This document shows, piece by piece, positions 6,085-14,585 of a stretch of 21,336 nucleotides of DNA. This DNA comes from a virus. The notes below the pieces were generated by a model that saw only the letters and a program-made list of their open reading frames with translations, searched no databases and was not told where the DNA came from. The stretch is taken from positions 1-21,336 of IMG/VR virus record IMGVR_UViG_3300049218_000085. The stretch is one strand, 5' to 3'. The translations under genes were made by a program, and so were the position numbers. How positions within the stretch are numbered: the stretch's first letter is position 1; each line of letters starts with the position of its first letter.

Positions 6085-7524
<1,440 letters not shown>

Positions 7525-7527
7525 AAC

Positions 7528-7929
7528 GTGACGATTAACAACCGGGGTCTAGCGGGCCAACCCAGTTTGCCTTTCACGGATAACCGCTCCTATGCTGGAG
7601 CGGATATTTTCTGTGACCTGACCTTCCTCGACCATACGATGACGAACGTAACGCCGTCTAGCTTCCAATGGCAGCTCGATGACATTACCAACGACATTAA
7701 CATGGTGCCGCTGACCACGGTCAACGCGCCCGCTTCGACGGTTCCGTACACGTTGCAAATACCTGGCTCGACCATGGTAATGACGTACCCGTATCAGGGT
7801 TCGCAGCTCTGCCAGCTCACCATCGTCGCGACGATCACGGACAGCGTGACGGGTAATACTTCGACGAGCATCGTCGGGCTTGCGATTCTTGAGCTGGTCG
7901 CGATTCAAACGCCTAGCGGAAACTTCTAA
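7528..7929 (+). CDS. Beta-sandwich hypothetical virion-type protein (133 aa)
   Basis: GTG at 7528 lies just after the glycosidase stop. The sequence alternates hydrophobic beta strands (YAGADIFCDLTFLDHTMTNV, SSFQWQLDDITNDINMVPLT, CQLTIVATITDSVTGNTSTS). It reads like an Ig-like or BppU-type tail accessory domain. The GTG start and lack of a strong ribosome binding site suggest coupling to the gene before it. No precise family is claimed. Confidence 0.55.
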   Translation: MTINNRGLAGQPSLPFTDNRSYAGADIFCDLTFLDHTMTNVTPSSFQWQLDDITNDINMVPLTTVNAPASTVPYTLQIPGSTMVMTYPYQGSQLCQLTIVATITDSVTGNTSTSIVGLAILELVAIQTPSGNF

Positions 7930-8019: not shown

Positions 8020-8292
8020 ATGAAATTGCTCGATGACCTTTTGATCGTCCTACCGGACGAACCGAACCTGGCACGGCGCATCGTTTTGCCGAAGTGGTCG
8101 AAGGGCCTCGAAGGGAAAATTCTCGCCGCCGGGCCGGGCTTGTTGCTCAGCAACGGGTCTCGCGTCCCTATGGAAGTTGAAGTCGGCGACCGGGTTTGCT
8201 TCGGCGCGGCGACGGGAATGGAGTCTGTTTTCAAGGGCCAGTCAATCCGCATCATGCGACAGACTGATCTGCTCGGAGTGATCGAAGCATGA
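8020..8292 (+). CDS. GroES-like co-chaperonin (90 aa)
   Basis: The ATG at 8020 has GAGGA four bases upstream. The sequence follows the Cpn10 fold throughout. It has an N-terminal LLDDLLIVLPDEP strand in place of the usual LxDRVxV, then IVLPKWSKGLEGKILAAGPG, the conserved RVPMEVEVGDRVCFG, and the ending IRIMRQTDLLGVIEA, which matches the GroES C-terminus (…IMRExDILGVIE). The length is close to the usual ~95 residues. The mobile-loop region is short and its GroEL-contact tripeptide appears to be IVL. Phage co-chaperonins (T4 gp31 type) replace host GroES to fold large or awkward coat proteins. The gene overlaps a second GroES-like gene by ATGA. Confidence 0.85.
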   Translation: MKLLDDLLIVLPDEPNLARRIVLPKWSKGLEGKILAAGPGLLLSNGSRVPMEVEVGDRVCFGAATGMESVFKGQSIRIMRQTDLLGVIEA

Positions 8293-8762
8293 GCCACATT
8301 TACCCGGCGAGCTACGGCGATCCGAGAGATTGGAAGGTGCTGCGCGACCGAGTGATCGTGCAGCGACTCGAATACAAGCACCCTATTCTGGCCGTGGTCG
8401 GCGTCACCCTGCAAAAAGGTCGCGTAATCAGTGTCGGTTACGGGCGCCGTAAACGCCGTCTGGTGCGTTTTGAGAAAATGCCGGGCATGAGTGCCGGCGC
8501 ACTGTACTTCGAGGACGGTGAAGAAACTGGCGAGCTTACGCCGATGAAAGTAGCGGTCGGGGACATTGTAGAGTTCTCGCCGCGCGACCAGTTCGAGTTC
8601 AATTACGGCGGCCAGGACTATATCGTCATCAAGCAAAATGCGATCTACGGCACGCACAACGACGCAAAAGACGACGAGGCCCTGCTATGGCAGCAGTCCG
8701 CCGGCTTTGACCGAGACGGCCACTTTCTTAGCGGGAAGGAAAACTGGCAACATGTCGGATGA
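8289..8762 (+). CDS. Second, extended GroES-like protein (157 aa)
   Basis: The start overlaps the upstream GroES-like stop as ATGA. Residues 15-125 fit a Cpn10-type barrel: WKVLRDRVIVQRLEYKHPIL, a mobile-loop-like segment with VVGVTL, QKGRVISVGYG, KVAVGDIVEFSPRDQ, and DYIVIKQNAIYG at the position of the GroES C-terminal strand. A ~30-residue insertion (RRKRRLVRFEKMPGMSAGAL and following) and a ~40-residue C-terminal extension make it longer than GroES. It probably co-assembles with, or specialises, the first copy. It overlaps the start of the terminase small subunit by 11 bases. Confidence 0.72.
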   Translation: MSHIYPASYGDPRDWKVLRDRVIVQRLEYKHPILAVVGVTLQKGRVISVGYGRRKRRLVRFEKMPGMSAGALYFEDGEETGELTPMKVAVGDIVEFSPRDQFEFNYGGQDYIVIKQNAIYGTHNDAKDDEALLWQQSAGFDRDGHFLSGKENWQHVG

Positions 8763-9816
8763 ACCGACAGCGAAGAAGCGCGGCCGGCCGAAACTTGTCC
8801 GACCTGTTCAAAATTACGAGCTAATCGACCCCGCCACTATCGCCCCATTGCGCGACGGCATCCCGGACCTGTATAATTATGTACCTTCACGTTTTGTTTC
8901 AGAAGATGAAGCGAATTTTCGTGGCTGGCCTCTTTTCTACGATGGTCGAAAGTGCCGCTATCAACATCAAGCCGCGCGTTACGCTTCAAATCCGAACCAA
9001 TGCACCGATTGCCACCGCCTCAAGCGGGGCAAAGAGCCCGTTTACGGTAAGACCGGCGGCGAGCCCGAGTACAAGCAACGTCCGTATAAGCAGCGCGCTC
9101 CAGCTGATCCCGTGGGAACACTCCCGGCGGTAAAGCCGCTGGAGCCAAACGCTTCTGAGAAGGAATTTCTCGTCGCTTACGCGGAGACGAAAGACTTCCT
9201 CGCCGCGTGCGACCGGGCGAAGTTTAAGCAGGCGCAAATTCACATGCGCCTCTCGGTCTCGAAGGTTTTCAAAGACGCTTGCAACGATCTTGAGACGCGG
9301 CTCGGCATCAAGCAAACGATTCCGTTCGCGGGCGAGTTCGACTGGGACGAAGATAAGAGAACGCGATTGCTCACCGTCTACATCGACACAGGCGATATCG
9401 CCGCCGCGCGCGACTCCATCGGCTGCACGGCGACGCAGTTCTATAAAGAACTCGAAGCCAACGGAGATTTTCAATTGAAGTTGGACGCGGCAAAGCCGCT
9501 GGCCGACAACGCTCTCGAAGAACGCGCGGTTCAGTTCGCGCTCGCCGGCAACGATAAATTGCTGGCCAAGATTCTCTCGGCGAAAAAGCCCGAGTATCGG
9601 GAGCGGATGCAAATGGACCTCAACTTAACTGAGAAGCTCACCGATGACCAGCTCAACAAGCGACTCGCTCAGCTCGTCGCCAGCGCCAAACGACGCGGCG
9701 ACACAACTGTCATCGACGCTATCTTCTCTGAGCCGCCAAGAGAAATTGGCACTGTTGGAAACCCTGGCGGAACGCGAGAAACGACAGAGCCGGAACAGAA
9801 TTGCGACCTACTTTAA
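8752..9816 (+). CDS. terS: Putative terminase small subunit with N-terminal Cys/His motif (354 aa)
   Basis: The start at 8752 has AAGGA upstream. The N-terminus is basic (KKRGRPKL, AT-hook-like). Residues ~65-100 hold a C-x3-H … C-x2-C-H pattern (CRYQHQAARYASNPNQCTDC, then HR) that looks like a small zinc-binding or HNH-associated motif. From about residue 130 the protein is helical with two HTH-like repeats (FLAACDRAKFKQAQIHMRLS and IAAARDSIGCTATQFYKELE), as in DNA-binding terminase small subunits. Position directly before terL supports the call. The last 173 bases overlap the N-terminus of terL in another frame, an unusually long overlap, so part of the C-terminus may be non-conserved. Confidence 0.7.
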   Translation: MSDEPTAKKRGRPKLVRPVQNYELIDPATIAPLRDGIPDLYNYVPSRFVSEDEANFRGWPLFYDGRKCRYQHQAARYASNPNQCTDCHRLKRGKEPVYGKTGGEPEYKQRPYKQRAPADPVGTLPAVKPLEPNASEKEFLVAYAETKDFLAACDRAKFKQAQIHMRLSVSKVFKDACNDLETRLGIKQTIPFAGEFDWDEDKRTRLLTVYIDTGDIAAARDSIGCTATQFYKELEANGDFQLKLDAAKPLADNALEERAVQFALAGNDKLLAKILSAKKPEYRERMQMDLNLTEKLTDDQLNKRLAQLVASAKRRGDTTVIDAIFSEPPREIGTVGNPGGTRETTEPEQNCDLL

Positions 9817-11260
9817 CACGCCGGAAGTCCGCGCGAGTTACCCGAAGCAGATGCAATTTTTCGGATATGGTGCTATACACAACGAGCGGCTACTCGCGGG
9901 GGGCAACAGGTGCCTTACACCATGGACGGTGATCCCCACGGGTCACGGTGAGCGCCAAGTTTGCGAAGTTCTCGACGCGGAAGCGTTCGATGTTCAGGCT
10001 TGGGACGGTGAGACTCTACGAAGTAGGCGATCCGGGAACGTATTTCTAAAGGGCATCGAGCCAGCGTTTCGGATTCATCTGGACAACGGCGAAGTTTTTG
10101 AGTGCTCCCGTAAGCACCGGGTATTGATGCCCGAAGGCCAGTACCATAGTTTCGAGCGGATAATGTCGCGGCCAAGTGTGCTCCATTTGTCGCGTACACT
10201 TCAAGGTTGGAAGGCCAATTGTGCCTCGGGTGATCGTCCTTATGATCGACCACTTCTTGAGGTTCAAGGTAGCGACCTAACTCTACCTCGCAAACTACGC
10301 GGTGCTCCCAGCAGCGCCCAGAGTGATTTGCGTGCGGGTGCAGCGGCATCCAAATTTGCACGTAACCGTGTTTGTCGACCGTTCGACCGCCGCGCCATTG
10401 AGGATGCCCCAAGCCAGCTTTCGGCCCTGAACGGCATTTCAGAATGGGCAGCCCCAGTTGCGCCGCGTAGCGCCTTACCGAAGTTTCCGGCAGCGCAGTT
10501 CGTCGGCAAATCTCCTGAATATATAGCCCGTCTGATAGCAGACTGGCAATTTGAGATTTTGCAATTGCTGGATCAGTGCGAGTCTGTTTACCTAGCATGT
10601 TCTCCGATCCTTTTGCATGGCGGGAACAGCATTGTAGCAGTGGCGGAGATAGGGCCGCAACCGATAGTAGATTTTGAGGTTCCCGGTTTCCATAACTACA
10701 TGGCGGCGGGGGTCGTCCATCACAATAGCGGCAAGAGCGTAGCTGGCTGTTACGAGGACACGCTCCACCTGACCGGGCAATACCCGGATTGGTGGCCGGG
10801 TAAACGATTCGATCATCCGGTGGACGCTTGGATCGCAGGCGACACGGCAAAAACAGTCCGCGACATTTTGCAGACGATGCTCTGCGGGCCGTGGGGCGAC
10901 AAGTCAATGCTCGGCACCGGGATGATTCCCGGCGACTTGATTCTGAACACCACCGTAAAGCACGGCCTCTCCGATGCGTTCGAGGCGGTATTCGTGAAGC
11001 ATGCGCCGACCGGCGGCACGTCGATGTTGCAGTTCAAAAGCTATGATCAGGGTCGCACGTCGTATCAAGGTACGTCGCAGCACTTGATCCACCTGGACGA
11101 AGAACCGCCGCTCGACATTTACACCGAATGCCTGTTACGCACGATGACGGTTGACGGGATTATTTCGCTGACGGCGACCCCGCTTAGCGGGCTCACCGAT
11201 CTGCTCATCCAGTTCTTGCCGGAAATGGCGCCCGCGCCCGAAGTGGCGCAACCGACATGA
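9644..11260 (+). CDS. terL: Terminase large subunit, ATPase part, carrying an intein in the Walker A motif
   Basis: The 538-residue precursor is an N-extein (1-89), an intein (90-361) and a C-extein (362-538). Joined exteins recreate the packaging-ATPase P-loop AGGNR-SGKS. Walker B is LIHLDEEPP and the coupling motif is SLTATPLSG. CYEDTLHLTGQYPDWWPGKR and LQFKSYDQGRTSYQGTSQ are typical of phage TerL of the Terminase_6 type. The 266-residue spliced product ends just after the ATPase domain (FLPEMAPAPEVAQPT). The nuclease domain is in the next ORF, whose ATG overlaps this stop as ATGA. The start at 9644 gives the usual N-terminal helix (ALLETLAEREKRQSRNRIAT) but lies 173 bases inside terS. Function requires intein removal because the P-loop is interrupted. 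Confidence 0.88.
   Translation: MTSSTSDSLSSSPAPNDAATQLSSTLSSLSRQEKLALLETLAEREKRQSRNRIATYFNTPEVRASYPKQMQFFGYGAIHNERLLAGGNRCLTPWTVIPTGHGERQVCEVLDAEAFDVQAWDGETLRSRRSGNVFLKGIEPAFRIHLDNGEVFECSRKHRVLMPEGQYHSFERIMSRPSVLHLSRTLQGWKANCASGDRPYDRPLLEVQGSDLTLPRKLRGAPSSAQSDLRAGAAASKFARNRVCRPFDRRAIEDAPSQLSALNGISEWAAPVAPRSALPKFPAAQFVGKSPEYIARLIADWQFEILQLLDQCESVYLACSPILLHGGNSIVAVAEIGPQPIVDFEVPGFHNYMAAGVVHHNSGKSVAGCYEDTLHLTGQYPDWWPGKRFDHPVDAWIAGDTAKTVRDILQTMLCGPWGDKSMLGTGMIPGDLILNTTVKHGLSDAFEAVFVKHAPTGGTSMLQFKSYDQGRTSYQGTSQHLIHLDEEPPLDIYTECLLRTMTVDGIISLTATPLSGLTDLLIQFLPEMAPAPEVAQPT
9911..10726 (+). mobile_element. Intein (272 aa) in TerL Walker A, without an in-frame endonuclease
   Basis: The intein starts at Cys1 (codon 9911-9913) after AGGNR and ends in His271-Asn272 (10721-10726) before Ser of SGKS, the class 1 splice-junction pattern (Cys1, His-Asn, +1 Ser). 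Block A is CLTPWTVIPTGHGERQVCEV. Block B is NGEVFECSRKHRVLM with His69. Block F is PIVDFEVPGFHNYMAAG with Asp254 and His261, and block G is VVHHN. Residues ~78-240 show neither LAGLIDADG nor HNH motifs in this frame, only low-plausibility sequence. On the opposite strand that stretch encodes an HNH endonuclease. The element is thus a mini-intein-like splicing domain interrupted by an antisense homing gene. Confidence 0.93.
9915..10598 (-). CDS. HTH-HNH homing-endonuclease-like protein encoded antisense within the intein
   Basis: The minus-strand ATG at 10598-10596 is preceded by AAAAGGATCGGAGAAC, a good ribosome binding site, and the stop TAA is at 9917-9915. The 227-residue product has an N-terminal HTH (residues ~14-50, DGLYIQEICRRTALPETSVR). 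Then comes the HNH module: HPQWRGGRTVDKHGYVQIWM, WEHRVV (residues 97-102), VVDHKDDHPRHNWPSNLEVY (residues 116-135, catalytic-type His and Asn residues) and NGAHLAATL. This is the usual arrangement of phage HNH homing nucleases. The core (about 10598-10158) fills the gap between intein blocks B and F. The remaining C-terminal tail runs antisense to block A/B and is probably constrained by it. A weak promoter candidate, TTGCGG-18-TACAAT (10660-10631, minus), also lies inside the intein. The frame extends upstream to 10907, but the ATG at 10598 is the supported start. Confidence 0.87.
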   Translation of the reverse strand: MLGKQTRTDPAIAKSQIASLLSDGLYIQEICRRTALPETSVRRYAAQLGLPILKCRSGPKAGLGHPQWRGGRTVDKHGYVQIWMPLHPHANHSGRCWEHRVVCEVELGRYLEPQEVVDHKDDHPRHNWPSNLEVYATNGAHLAATLSARNYGTGLRASIPGAYGSTQKLRRCPDESETLARCPLEIRSRIAYFVESHRPKPEHRTLPRRELRKLGAHRDPWGSPSMV

Positions 11261-11988
11261 GTAAGATTGCGTTGTTCGTGTCTTGGGAAGATGTTCCGCA
11301 CTTAACGAAGGAACAGAAAGCCTCGATTCTCGCGAGTATTCCGCCGTGGCAACGAGATAGCCGCACGCGTGGAGTTCCTCAGCTTGGTGCCGGCGCTATT
11401 TACCAAGTCGCGGAAAGTGAAGTCGTCGTGCAGCCATTTCCGATACCGGATTTTTGGCCGCGCTGCTTCGCGCTCGACGTGGGGTGGAATCGAACCGCGG
11501 CTATATGGCTGGCGAAGAACCCTGACACCAATCAGGTTTTTGCATACAACGAATACTATCGCGGCCAGGCCGAACCTAGCGTTCATGCCGCGGCGATTAA
11601 GGCCCGCGGGCATTGGATTCCAGGCGTCATTGACCCCGCTGCGCGCGGCCGAAGCCAGATCGACGGCAAAAAGCTGTTCGATATGTACATGGACCTGGGC
11701 CTGGAATTGACGAAAGCCGACAACTCCCGCGAGGCCGGCATCTACCAAGTATGGGAGTTGCTTTCGCAAGGCCAGTTGAAAATTTTCTCGACGTGCGTGA
11801 ATACGCTGAGCGAATACCGCCTTTACAGGCGTGACGAGAAAGGCAACATCGTGAAGAAAAACGACCACTTAATGGATGCTTTGCGATACGGAGTTATGAG
11901 CGGGCTCGCGCTGGCCGTACCTATGCCGTTTAACGCCGCTGGCGGTAAATGGTTTCACTGGTCTCCGCCGAAGGTATGGGCAGGTTAA
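11257..11988 (+). CDS. terL: Terminase large subunit, nuclease part (separate ORF)
   Basis: The ATG at 11257 overlaps the stop of the ATPase ORF (ATGA). No clear ribosome binding site is present, so reinitiation is likely. The 243 residues begin MSKIALFVSWEDVPHLTKEQ, the segment that follows the ATPase domain in intact TerL proteins. The RNase H-like nuclease follows, with acidic residues in FALDVGWN, GVIDPAARGRS and KKNDHLMDALRYGVMSG. This part cuts concatemeric DNA during packaging. ATPase (266 aa after splicing) and nuclease (243 aa) sum to about 510 residues, the normal length of a single TerL. The split therefore lies at the natural domain border, with nothing missing. Confidence 0.85.
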   Translation: MSKIALFVSWEDVPHLTKEQKASILASIPPWQRDSRTRGVPQLGAGAIYQVAESEVVVQPFPIPDFWPRCFALDVGWNRTAAIWLAKNPDTNQVFAYNEYYRGQAEPSVHAAAIKARGHWIPGVIDPAARGRSQIDGKKLFDMYMDLGLELTKADNSREAGIYQVWELLSQGQLKIFSTCVNTLSEYRLYRRDEKGNIVKKNDHLMDALRYGVMSGLALAVPMPFNAAGGKWFHWSPPKVWAG

Positions 11989-12416: not shown

Positions 12417-14585
12417 ATGGACGCACTCGGCAGCGACCCGCCAAGCATGTTGACGGGGCGCCCTATAGACGGCGCCGACAAAACACCGAACGATGACAAC
12501 TCCGATTTGATCGGCGAGTTGCCGGGTGTCGTTGACGTGGCCGGGCAGGACAAGCCGAGCGGGTACGAGGACCTCGACGATAAAGCCTCCACGGTGGACC
12601 GGGTACGAAAACGGTACGAGGAAGGCACCGGGGCTTTTGAGGAAAATCGCCGGCTGTTCTCGGAAGATTTGAACTTCATCTATAACGCCGAATCCATGGG
12701 TCAGTGGGACCCGGTTGTGCTGCAAGCCCGACAAGGGAAACCCTGTTACACATTCAACCGTGTCATAGGCCCAGTGAACCTCGTAATCGCCGACATGCGC
12801 CAGACCCGGCCGGCGGGCAAAGTGCGGCCCTCGACGCAGGGTGCGACCGAGGCAACTGCCGAAGTTTTCGGCGGCCTCATGCGCGCCATCGAGCAATCGT
12901 CGCGCGCCGAGACGATCTACAATACGCAGTACAAGAACGCCGTCGCCGGGGGCTATGGGGCCTGGTACTTGATGCCCGAATACGTGTCGGATAAATCGTT
13001 CGACCAGGTTCTGCGCATCAAGGACGTACCGAATCCGCAGACGTGCGTATGGGACCCGGAAGCGAACGACCCATGCTGCGCGGATGCGATGTGGGGAATG
13101 ATCGGGGAACGCATCAGCCTCGACAAGTACCATTCGCTGTATCCTGACGCCGACGCGAGCGGCACTAGTTTCAACTGGTCGCGCGACTCTTATGGCTGGT
13201 TCACAGATAAAGAAGTTCGCGTCGTGGACTACTACGAGCGCGTACCTTTCAAGCAAGAAATCGCGCTGCTTTCCGATGGCTCCGTCGTAACATGGGACGC
13301 GGCAGCGAAGGAAAAAGAAGCGCATTACGCGCTGAACGATCCGACCGGACAAAATGACCAGTACCCGCGGCTGGTGCGCACTCGTGAAATCTTGAAGTGG
13401 CGCGTGATGTGGGTAAAAGTCGATGGCAGCCAGATCCTCGAAGGTCCGCGCTACTACGATTGGAAGCGCATCCCGCTCGTGCGCATACCGGGGCGATACA
13501 TCAACATCGAGGGACGGAAGAAACTTCAATCGTTGATCCGTCACGCGAAGGACGCGCAGCGCTCCTACAATAGTCGCTGCTCCGACATGATCGAGCGTAG
13601 CGCGCTGATTCCGAAAGCGCCGTATCTCGTCACGGAACGCATGGTAAAGGGGTACGAAAATGAATGGGCACAGGCGAATACGGCCTCGCGTCCTTACCTC
13701 CCGTATAATGCGGACCCAAATGCGGAAGGGAGCGGCGGAATGCCTATCCGCACTCCGCCAATCGACTTGCCATCGGGAGCATTGGCTCTTGCGCAAATGG
13801 CACAGGCTGATATCCAAGCAACGACGGGATTTTTCGATCCCGCGCTAGGCAACGCGGATGACATGAATCGCGTGTCGGGTAAAGCGCTCGTGCAGCATAC
13901 GCGGCGCTCGGACCTCGGCAGTTTTGAATTTGTTGACGGTTTTCGCGCGGCGCTCCAGCTCACTTGGGAAATGGGTATCGACATGATACCTACGATTTAC
14001 GATACCGAGCGTGTCGAGCGCATCGTCGGGCACGACGATGTTGAAAAAATGGTCACGATCAACGGCACTAGCGGTGACGTGATACACGACCTTTCGGAAG
14101 GCTCTTACGATGTGACCGTTACCATCGGGCCTTCGTACCAGACGGCCCGACAAGAGACCTTGCAGACGCTCATAGACGCGGCCGAGACGATACCGCAGAT
14201 TGCCCAGCTTTGCCCGGACCTGCTTGCGAAGAACCTCGACTCGCCGGAAGCCGATGAAATGGCGCGGCGCTTGCGAATCGGGCTCATTCAGCAAGGCATC
14301 GTGCAGCCGACCGAACAGGAAAAAACGCAGCTCCCGCCGCCGCCGCAACCGTCACCGGAACAGCAAGCGGAACTCGCGTATAAACAGGCCCGCGCGCACG
14401 CGGAGCAAGGGAAAGCAGCCGTGCAGCAGAATAAGGCGCAGTCGGCGCCACTCGAAGCGCACAAGCAAGCGATAGAGACGGCCGGCAAGCACCTGGACAA
14501 CCTGCTCGCGGCCAAAGAATTAGATCAGCCGATGGCCGCCGCAGAAGCGGAAGCCTCGCAGGGCAGCGCCCCTCAACGCGCCTAG
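12417..14585 (+). CDS. P22-type portal protein (722 aa)
   Basis: The length is close to the 725 residues of P22 gp1. The sequence has the family's features: FSEDLNFIYNAESMGQWDP and RQGKPCYTFNRVIGPVNLVI near residues 80-125, then QTRPAGKVRPS. A core follows with the KNAVAGGYGAWYL segment, DPEANDPCCADAMW, and the DMIERSALIPKAPYLVT / PYNADPNAEGSGGMP stretch. The C-terminal part holds TTGFFDPALGNADDMNRVSG and a Gln/Ala-rich helical end (QQAELAYKQARAHAEQGKAA) matching the long helical barrel of P22 portals. It forms the dodecameric vertex ring through which DNA is packaged. It lies directly downstream of terminase, in P22 order. Confidence 0.92.
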   Translation: MDALGSDPPSMLTGRPIDGADKTPNDDNSDLIGELPGVVDVAGQDKPSGYEDLDDKASTVDRVRKRYEEGTGAFEENRRLFSEDLNFIYNAESMGQWDPVVLQARQGKPCYTFNRVIGPVNLVIADMRQTRPAGKVRPSTQGATEATAEVFGGLMRAIEQSSRAETIYNTQYKNAVAGGYGAWYLMPEYVSDKSFDQVLRIKDVPNPQTCVWDPEANDPCCADAMWGMIGERISLDKYHSLYPDADASGTSFNWSRDSYGWFTDKEVRVVDYYERVPFKQEIALLSDGSVVTWDAAAKEKEAHYALNDPTGQNDQYPRLVRTREILKWRVMWVKVDGSQILEGPRYYDWKRIPLVRIPGRYINIEGRKKLQSLIRHAKDAQRSYNSRCSDMIERSALIPKAPYLVTERMVKGYENEWAQANTASRPYLPYNADPNAEGSGGMPIRTPPIDLPSGALALAQMAQADIQATTGFFDPALGNADDMNRVSGKALVQHTRRSDLGSFEFVDGFRAALQLTWEMGIDMIPTIYDTERVERIVGHDDVEKMVTINGTSGDVIHDLSEGSYDVTVTIGPSYQTARQETLQTLIDAAETIPQIAQLCPDLLAKNLDSPEADEMARRLRIGLIQQGIVQPTEQEKTQLPPPPQPSPEQQAELAYKQARAHAEQGKAAVQQNKAQSAPLEAHKQAIETAGKHLDNLLAAKELDQPMAAAEAEASQGSAPQRA

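What the first reader, a model, noticed from the sequence alone, without database searches (positions are those of the whole stretch)
8020..8762. Two adjacent GroES-like genes in one phage
Both ORFs keep the Cpn10 strand order and the G-D-x-V-x-F-type core (VGDRVCFG; VGDIVEFSP). The first is near normal size; the second has an insertion and a C-terminal extension. Tandem overlapping co-chaperonin paralogues suggest a heteromeric cap for host GroEL, or division of labour for folding different virion proteins, plausibly the P22-type coat.
Basis: partly seen in the sequence, partly recalled or inferred. Interest (0 to 1): 0.7.

Follow-up and report, generated by a model that had tools for sequence, protein, structure and literature searches.

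The report
Two-gene phage lid for GroEL
A large group of uncultivated viruses with P22-type capsids carries two different, overlapping genes for GroES-like proteins (the lid of the cell's protein-folding chamber), sometimes fused into one, which suggests that they build their own mixed lid to help fold their virion proteins in the host's chamber.

Summary
The pair is no oddity of one contig: in 63 distinct loci orf2 follows orf1, 61 in tandem and 2 fused in one frame, as in chloroplast Cpn20; loci without orf1 are cut by contig ends. Both genes are under purifying selection (median dN/dS about 0.09 and 0.07). Carriers have P22 portal and coat genes and no detectable GroEL, so the partner is presumably host GroEL. 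orf1 keeps the GroEL-anchoring loop but lacks the roof hairpin in one subclade; orf2 has a shortened loop, a lengthened roof hairpin and a conserved tail. A second, unrelated virus lineage also has a conserved overlapping Cpn10 pair. Best reading: a two-component, probably hetero-oligomeric co-chaperonin, resembling chloroplast Cpn10/Cpn20. Mixed assembly and the coat as client are inferred, not shown. Two unlinked GroES-like genes per phage were already known in jumbo phages.

The parts
8020..8292 (+). orf1: Cpn10/GroES-like subunit, 90 aa, canonical GroEL-anchoring loop
   Evidence: Pfam Cpn10 43.0 bits; PDB Cpn10 chains E 6e-12; orthologues in 61 tandem + 2 fused loci
8080..8088 (+). I-V-L of the orf1 mobile loop (residues 21-23), aligned with the GroEL-binding IVL of GroES
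   Evidence: alignment with E. coli GroES; [IV]-x-[LM] in 60 of 61 orf1
8131..8172 (+). orf1 roof hairpin (about residues 38-51); absent in about 10 of 61 relatives
8289..8762 (+). orf2: divergent Cpn10-fold subunit, 157 aa
   Evidence: Pfam Cpn10 30.4 bits; AlphaFold2 model, Z 11.3 to 1p3h; dN/dS about 0.07
8370..8414 (+). shortened mobile-loop region of orf2 (residues 28-42, EYKHPILAVVGVTLQ), motif Y-x-HP-x-L
   Evidence: about 6 residues shorter than in GroES, motif nearly invariant
8448..8537 (+). lengthened roof hairpin of orf2 (residues 54-83)
   Evidence: strands 54-62 and 71-83 in the model; always present, longer still in many relatives
8661..8759 (+). C-terminal tail of orf2 with the conserved motif LLWQQSAG-[YF]-D-R-x-G-x-[FW]
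   Evidence: conserved in 22-sequence alignment; low confidence in the model
8752..9816 (+). context: terminase small-subunit-like gene
   Evidence: weak PHROG 4044 hit, position before the large terminase
12417..14585 (+). context: P22-type portal
   Evidence: PF16510 516 bits
15786..17054 (+). context: P22-type coat, proposed client
   Evidence: PF11651 95.5 bits

Best explanation
orf1 and orf2 encode two different, probably co-translated co-chaperonin subunits of the Cpn10 family that work with the host's GroEL (about 0.85 for this much). The most likely mechanism is that they assemble into one mixed, seven-domain lid. orf1 subunits supply the canonical hydrophobic mobile-loop anchor ([IV]-x-[LM]) that docks on GroEL. 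orf2 subunits, whose loop is shortened and carries another motif, supply an enlarged roof and a conserved tail that reshape the dome of the folding cage for virion proteins, most plausibly the P22-type coat. Shown: both are Cpn10-family, always linked, both under selection, fused in frame in two contigs, no phage GroEL found. Inferred: binding to GroEL, the mixed ring, the role of roof and tail, the client.
For: Cpn10 membership of both and barrel fold of orf2. Linkage without exception where DNA allows it: 61 tandem + 2 fused, and again from the orf1 side. In-frame fusions with diverged linkers. dN/dS 0.09 and 0.07. Complementary features: anchor loop in orf1, lengthened roof and tail in orf2, roof loss in some orf1. 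No GroEL in 20 virus records. Precedent: chloroplast Cpn10(1) works only as a hetero-oligomer with Cpn20, and there too the Cpn10s lack the roof that Cpn20 has (PMC4242682).
Against: No assembly, GroEL binding or client was tested. Seven-fold symmetry does not allow strict alternation of two subunits. Most orf1, including this one, keep a roof. The fused chain's structure could not be predicted. The records may be incomplete, so a phage GroEL could lie outside them.
Confidence: 0.47

Rival explanations
1. Two separate homo-heptameric lids with division of labour: orf1 a general GroES substitute, orf2 a specialised lid with a larger dome for one virion protein.
For: Both keep the barrel. Jumbo phages carry two unlinked GroES-like genes, so two lids per phage occur. 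orf2 keeps a conserved, if different, loop.
Against: Unbroken adjacency and overlap and in-frame fusions are hard to explain if the two never share a complex. orf2 lacks the canonical anchor.
Confidence: 0.27
2. orf2 is a Cpn10 relative put to another use (an adaptor, a regulator of orf1/GroEL, a cap for another ring such as ClpP, or a morphogenesis factor), and only orf1 is a lid.
For: Shortened loop without the usual tripeptide, and a conserved tail that looks like a binding peptide. A solved chloroplast ClpP complex contains Cpn20-family chains (7ekq), so Cpn10 domains can cap other rings.
Against: The barrel and the roof hairpin are kept, and the fusion to orf1 places it at the lid.
Confidence: 0.2
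3. orf2 is a decaying copy or a mistaken ORF.
For: orf2 matches Cpn10 models weakly and mostly over one half.
Against: Dozens of orthologues, dN/dS about 0.07, many invariant residues.
Confidence: 0.01

Closest known systems
Chloroplast/apicoplast Cpn10 with Cpn20 (two-domain co-chaperonin)
   Same: Two kinds of Cpn10 domain, sometimes fused in one chain (L023, L029); partners differ in roof and loop; unfused and fused forms both exist (PMC4242682, PMC3542282).
   Different: Viral, in an operon with capsid genes; in the window the domains are separate genes; the roof and loop changes are on other subunits in detail; mixed oligomers not tested.
T4 gp31 and RB49 CocO (phage co-chaperonins for host GroEL)
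   Same: Phage-encoded Cpn10-fold lid without a phage GroEL; orf1 lacks the roof in one subclade, as gp31 does (PMC6318259).
   Different: Two subunits instead of one; orf2 has a shorter loop and a longer roof, opposite to gp31 (longer loop, no roof). Fold match of orf2 to gp31 is only Z 7.9.
Two GroES-like genes of jumbo phages (CBB, GAP32 and relatives)
   Same: Two Cpn10-family genes in one phage (PMC5259590).
   Different: Unlinked: 123 kb apart in GAP32; not members of the orf2 family.
GroES of Xanthomonas phage PBR31
   Same: GroES gene at the start of the terminase/portal/scaffold module.
   Different: Only one Cpn10; the next gene is DUF5681, not Cpn10.

Membership tests
Cpn10/GroES (PF00166), orf1 | Score over Pfam's curated cut-off | tested here: met
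   43.0 bits against 21.1
Cpn10/GroES (PF00166), orf1 | Mobile loop with hydrophobic GroEL-binding tripeptide | tested here: met
   IVL at residues 21-23; [IV]-x-[LM] in 60 of 61; binding itself not tested
Cpn10/GroES (PF00166), orf2 | Score over Pfam's curated cut-off | tested here: met
   30.4 bits against 21.1; some relatives fall just below (18.0 bits for L024)
Cpn10/GroES (PF00166), orf2 | Cpn10 beta-barrel fold | tested here: met
   AlphaFold2 model; Z 11.3 to 1p3h_B, 11.0 to 1wnr_G
Cpn10/GroES (PF00166), orf2 | Canonical mobile loop with I-V-L type tripeptide | tested here: not met
   loop about 6 residues shorter, Y-x-HP-x-L instead; family membership rests on score and fold, the claim 'canonical GroES' is lowered
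Cpn10/GroES | Seven-membered ring that caps GroEL | not testable with these tools
   no multimer prediction or experiment available
Cpn20 (two-domain co-chaperonin) | Two Cpn10 domains in one chain | tested here: not met
   in the window they are two genes; met in relatives L023 and L029
Gp31-type phage lid, orf2 | No roof loops, lengthened mobile loop | tested here: not met
   orf2 has a lengthened roof hairpin and a shortened loop; gp31 features from PMC6318259
Gp31-type phage lid, orf1 | No roof loops | tested here: not met
   window orf1 keeps the roof segment; about 10 of 61 relatives lack it

The most novel reading that the evidence does not exclude
A virus-encoded, obligatorily mixed co-chaperonin ring with tasks split between subunits (one anchors to host GroEL, one shapes the dome), evolved independently of the chloroplast Cpn10/Cpn20 system and arisen at least twice in viruses (the second lineage being L191 and relatives).
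Probability: 0.38. Interest if true: 0.77.

Novelty: new variant of a known kind. Interest (0 to 1): 0.6.

Why it matters
Phage lids for GroEL have been treated as single-gene stand-ins for GroES (T4 gp31). A conserved two-subunit version with natural fused forms would give a simple bacterial system for a question so far confined to chloroplasts: how and why mixed co-chaperonin rings are built on a seven-fold chaperonin, and whether loop and roof are divided between subunits to fit a given client. It also supplies more than 60 sequence pairs for co-variation analysis of such rings.

Tried and rejected
Chance or decayed ORF: rejected by dN/dS and conservation. Second gene not Cpn10: rejected by the model. 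Fused chain as a test of domain arrangement: the model failed for the orf1 half (pLDDT under 50), because the aligner would not place orf1 and orf2 rows each on their own half and only two sequences covered that half. Profile comparison of A3 with A4 was trivial, since the fused rows carry orf1. tblastn of two orf2 proteins in INPHARED phages: nothing. Genome contigs: one hit, a 33.9-kb contig binned with a bog Solirubrobacterales MAG, too weak to name a host. Recent in-phage duplication: not supported, orf1 and orf2 do not group together, but deep splits have low support, so the origin is open. Papers: nothing found on tandem or fused phage Cpn10; the library is open-access only, and a survey of viral chaperonins (Marine et al. 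2017) was not held.

Full report
What is in the window. The window is a whole IMG/VR virus record of 21,336 bases. orf1 (8020-8292, 90 aa) and orf2 (8289-8762, 157 aa) overlap by ATGA. Pfam's Cpn10 model scores 43.0 and 30.4 bits against a cut-off of 21.1, PHROG 3188 'co-chaperonin GroES' matches both, and orf1 matches solved Cpn10 chains at E 6e-12. They are followed by a terminase small-subunit-like gene (weak match), the large terminase, a P22-type portal, a scaffold and a P22-type coat.

Fold of orf2. AlphaFold2 on an alignment of 22 relatives gave mean pLDDT 73 with a confident core; the loop near residues 30-40 and the C-terminal tail are poorly defined. Foldseek's best 35 matches are Cpn10, Cpn20-type or gp31 chains. 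VIA-align gives Z 11.3 to M. tuberculosis Cpn10, 11.0 to T. thermophilus Cpn10 and 7.9 to T4 gp31, with unrelated rows at 6.8 and below. The model shows a long hairpin (strands 54-62 and 71-83) at the place of the GroES roof.

The pair is conserved. A first scan with orf2 gave one relative, which already had the same pair. An alignment query gave 31 loci and a deeper one 93, of which 80 were kept. Among distinct loci orf1 lies before orf2 in 61 and is fused to it in 2. The rest start at contig ends, and for one of these (the contig of L038/L089/L190) the last 22 codons of orf1 were found before an inserted endonuclease gene. A reverse search from orf1 of L036 gave the same picture; its four exceptions are Cpn10s of other lineages. 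Inserted genes or longer spacers separate the pair in a few loci. Median dN/dS over close pairs is 0.089 for orf1 and 0.074 for orf2. In a tree with other phage and bacterial GroES, orf1 and orf2 are each monophyletic (support 99 and 100) but do not form one group, so the split is older than this set of phages and its origin is open.

Fusion. In L023 (264 aa) and L029 (259 aa), from two samples, one reading frame carries both domains, and Pfam finds two Cpn10 stretches in it. The linkers differ in sequence and by 15 nucleotides yet stay in frame, and in L029 the only in-frame start codon near the junction is a GTG at the end of the first domain. This is best explained as one fusion event that is kept. 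It is the layout of Cpn20. The structure of the fused chain could not be predicted well.

Carriers. The P22 portal family is found in 18 of 19 tested records and the P22 coat in 17 of 19; in the two misses the pair lies near a contig end, and in one the portal gene is cut. No GroEL-family gene was found in 20 virus records, several of 50-61 kb. The partner is then presumably host GroEL, unless a phage GroEL lies in unsequenced parts.

How it may work. Against E. coli GroES, orf1 keeps I-V-L in the mobile loop, and 60 of 61 orf1 have [IV]-x-[LM] followed by a conserved P-D-W. In about 10 of 61 orf1 the roof hairpin is gone, as in gp31 (PMC6318259). orf2 has a loop about 6 residues shorter, with Y-x-HP-x-L nearly invariant, a lengthened basic roof, and a conserved tail. 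In A. thaliana the Cpn10 partners lack the roof that Cpn20 has, Cpn10(1) works only in mixed oligomers, and at least four working GroES subunits of seven are said to be needed for GroEL binding (PMC4242682). By analogy I propose a mixed lid: orf1 anchors, orf2 shapes the dome. The coat (422 aa) is of a size that the cage can hold and the portal (722 aa) is not (general knowledge of GroEL), so the coat is the likeliest client; this is inference only.

A second case. The reverse search met L191, a virus of another kind with two adjacent Cpn10 genes (Pfam 5e-15 and 1e-7) that lack the orf2 features. The pair is kept in all 9 loci found, without GroEL or P22 coat in 7 records tested. Overlapping or abutting Cpn10 pairs thus exist in at least two virus lineages.

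Known and new. Two GroES-like genes per phage are described for jumbo phage CBB (PMC5259590), and GAP32 has two that lie 123 kb apart. A linked, co-conserved and sometimes fused pair was found neither in annotated phages nor in the papers searched. I rate it a new variant of a known kind.

Noticed in passing
L191:2459-3069 and relatives L194-L202: Another virus lineage (contigs up to 184 kb) with two adjacent or overlapping Cpn10 genes, kept in all 9 loci, with neither GroEL nor P22 coat found.
   Followed up: partly
9644-11260: The large terminase is interrupted at its Walker A motif (GGNR / SGKS) by what looks like an intein (C-terminal HHN-S; DnaB-intein-like match). An HNH endonuclease ORF lies on the opposite strand inside it (9918-10907 minus, HNH_3 E 4e-6). 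L003's terminase lacks the insert.
   Followed up: partly
11257-11988: The large terminase is split into an ATPase gene and a nuclease gene overlapping by ATGA, at the same point in L022, L026 and L043, while L003 and L019-L021 have one full-length gene.
   Followed up: partly
7528-7929: A 133-aa protein without any family match has a relative directly upstream of orf1 in nearly all related loci.
   Followed up: no
6085-7524: A GH5 cellulase-like protein (Pfam E 1.7e-32) with a long Pro-Ala linker sits next to the morphogenesis genes.
   Followed up: no
171-872: The left end holds a run of short repeats that reads as repetitive protein in several frames.
   Followed up: no
L034:5648-5971 and L038:67-432: Endonuclease VII-like genes are inserted between orf1 and orf2 (Endonuclease_7 E 2.8e-14 for L034), so the pair's junction may be a homing site.
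   Followed up: partly
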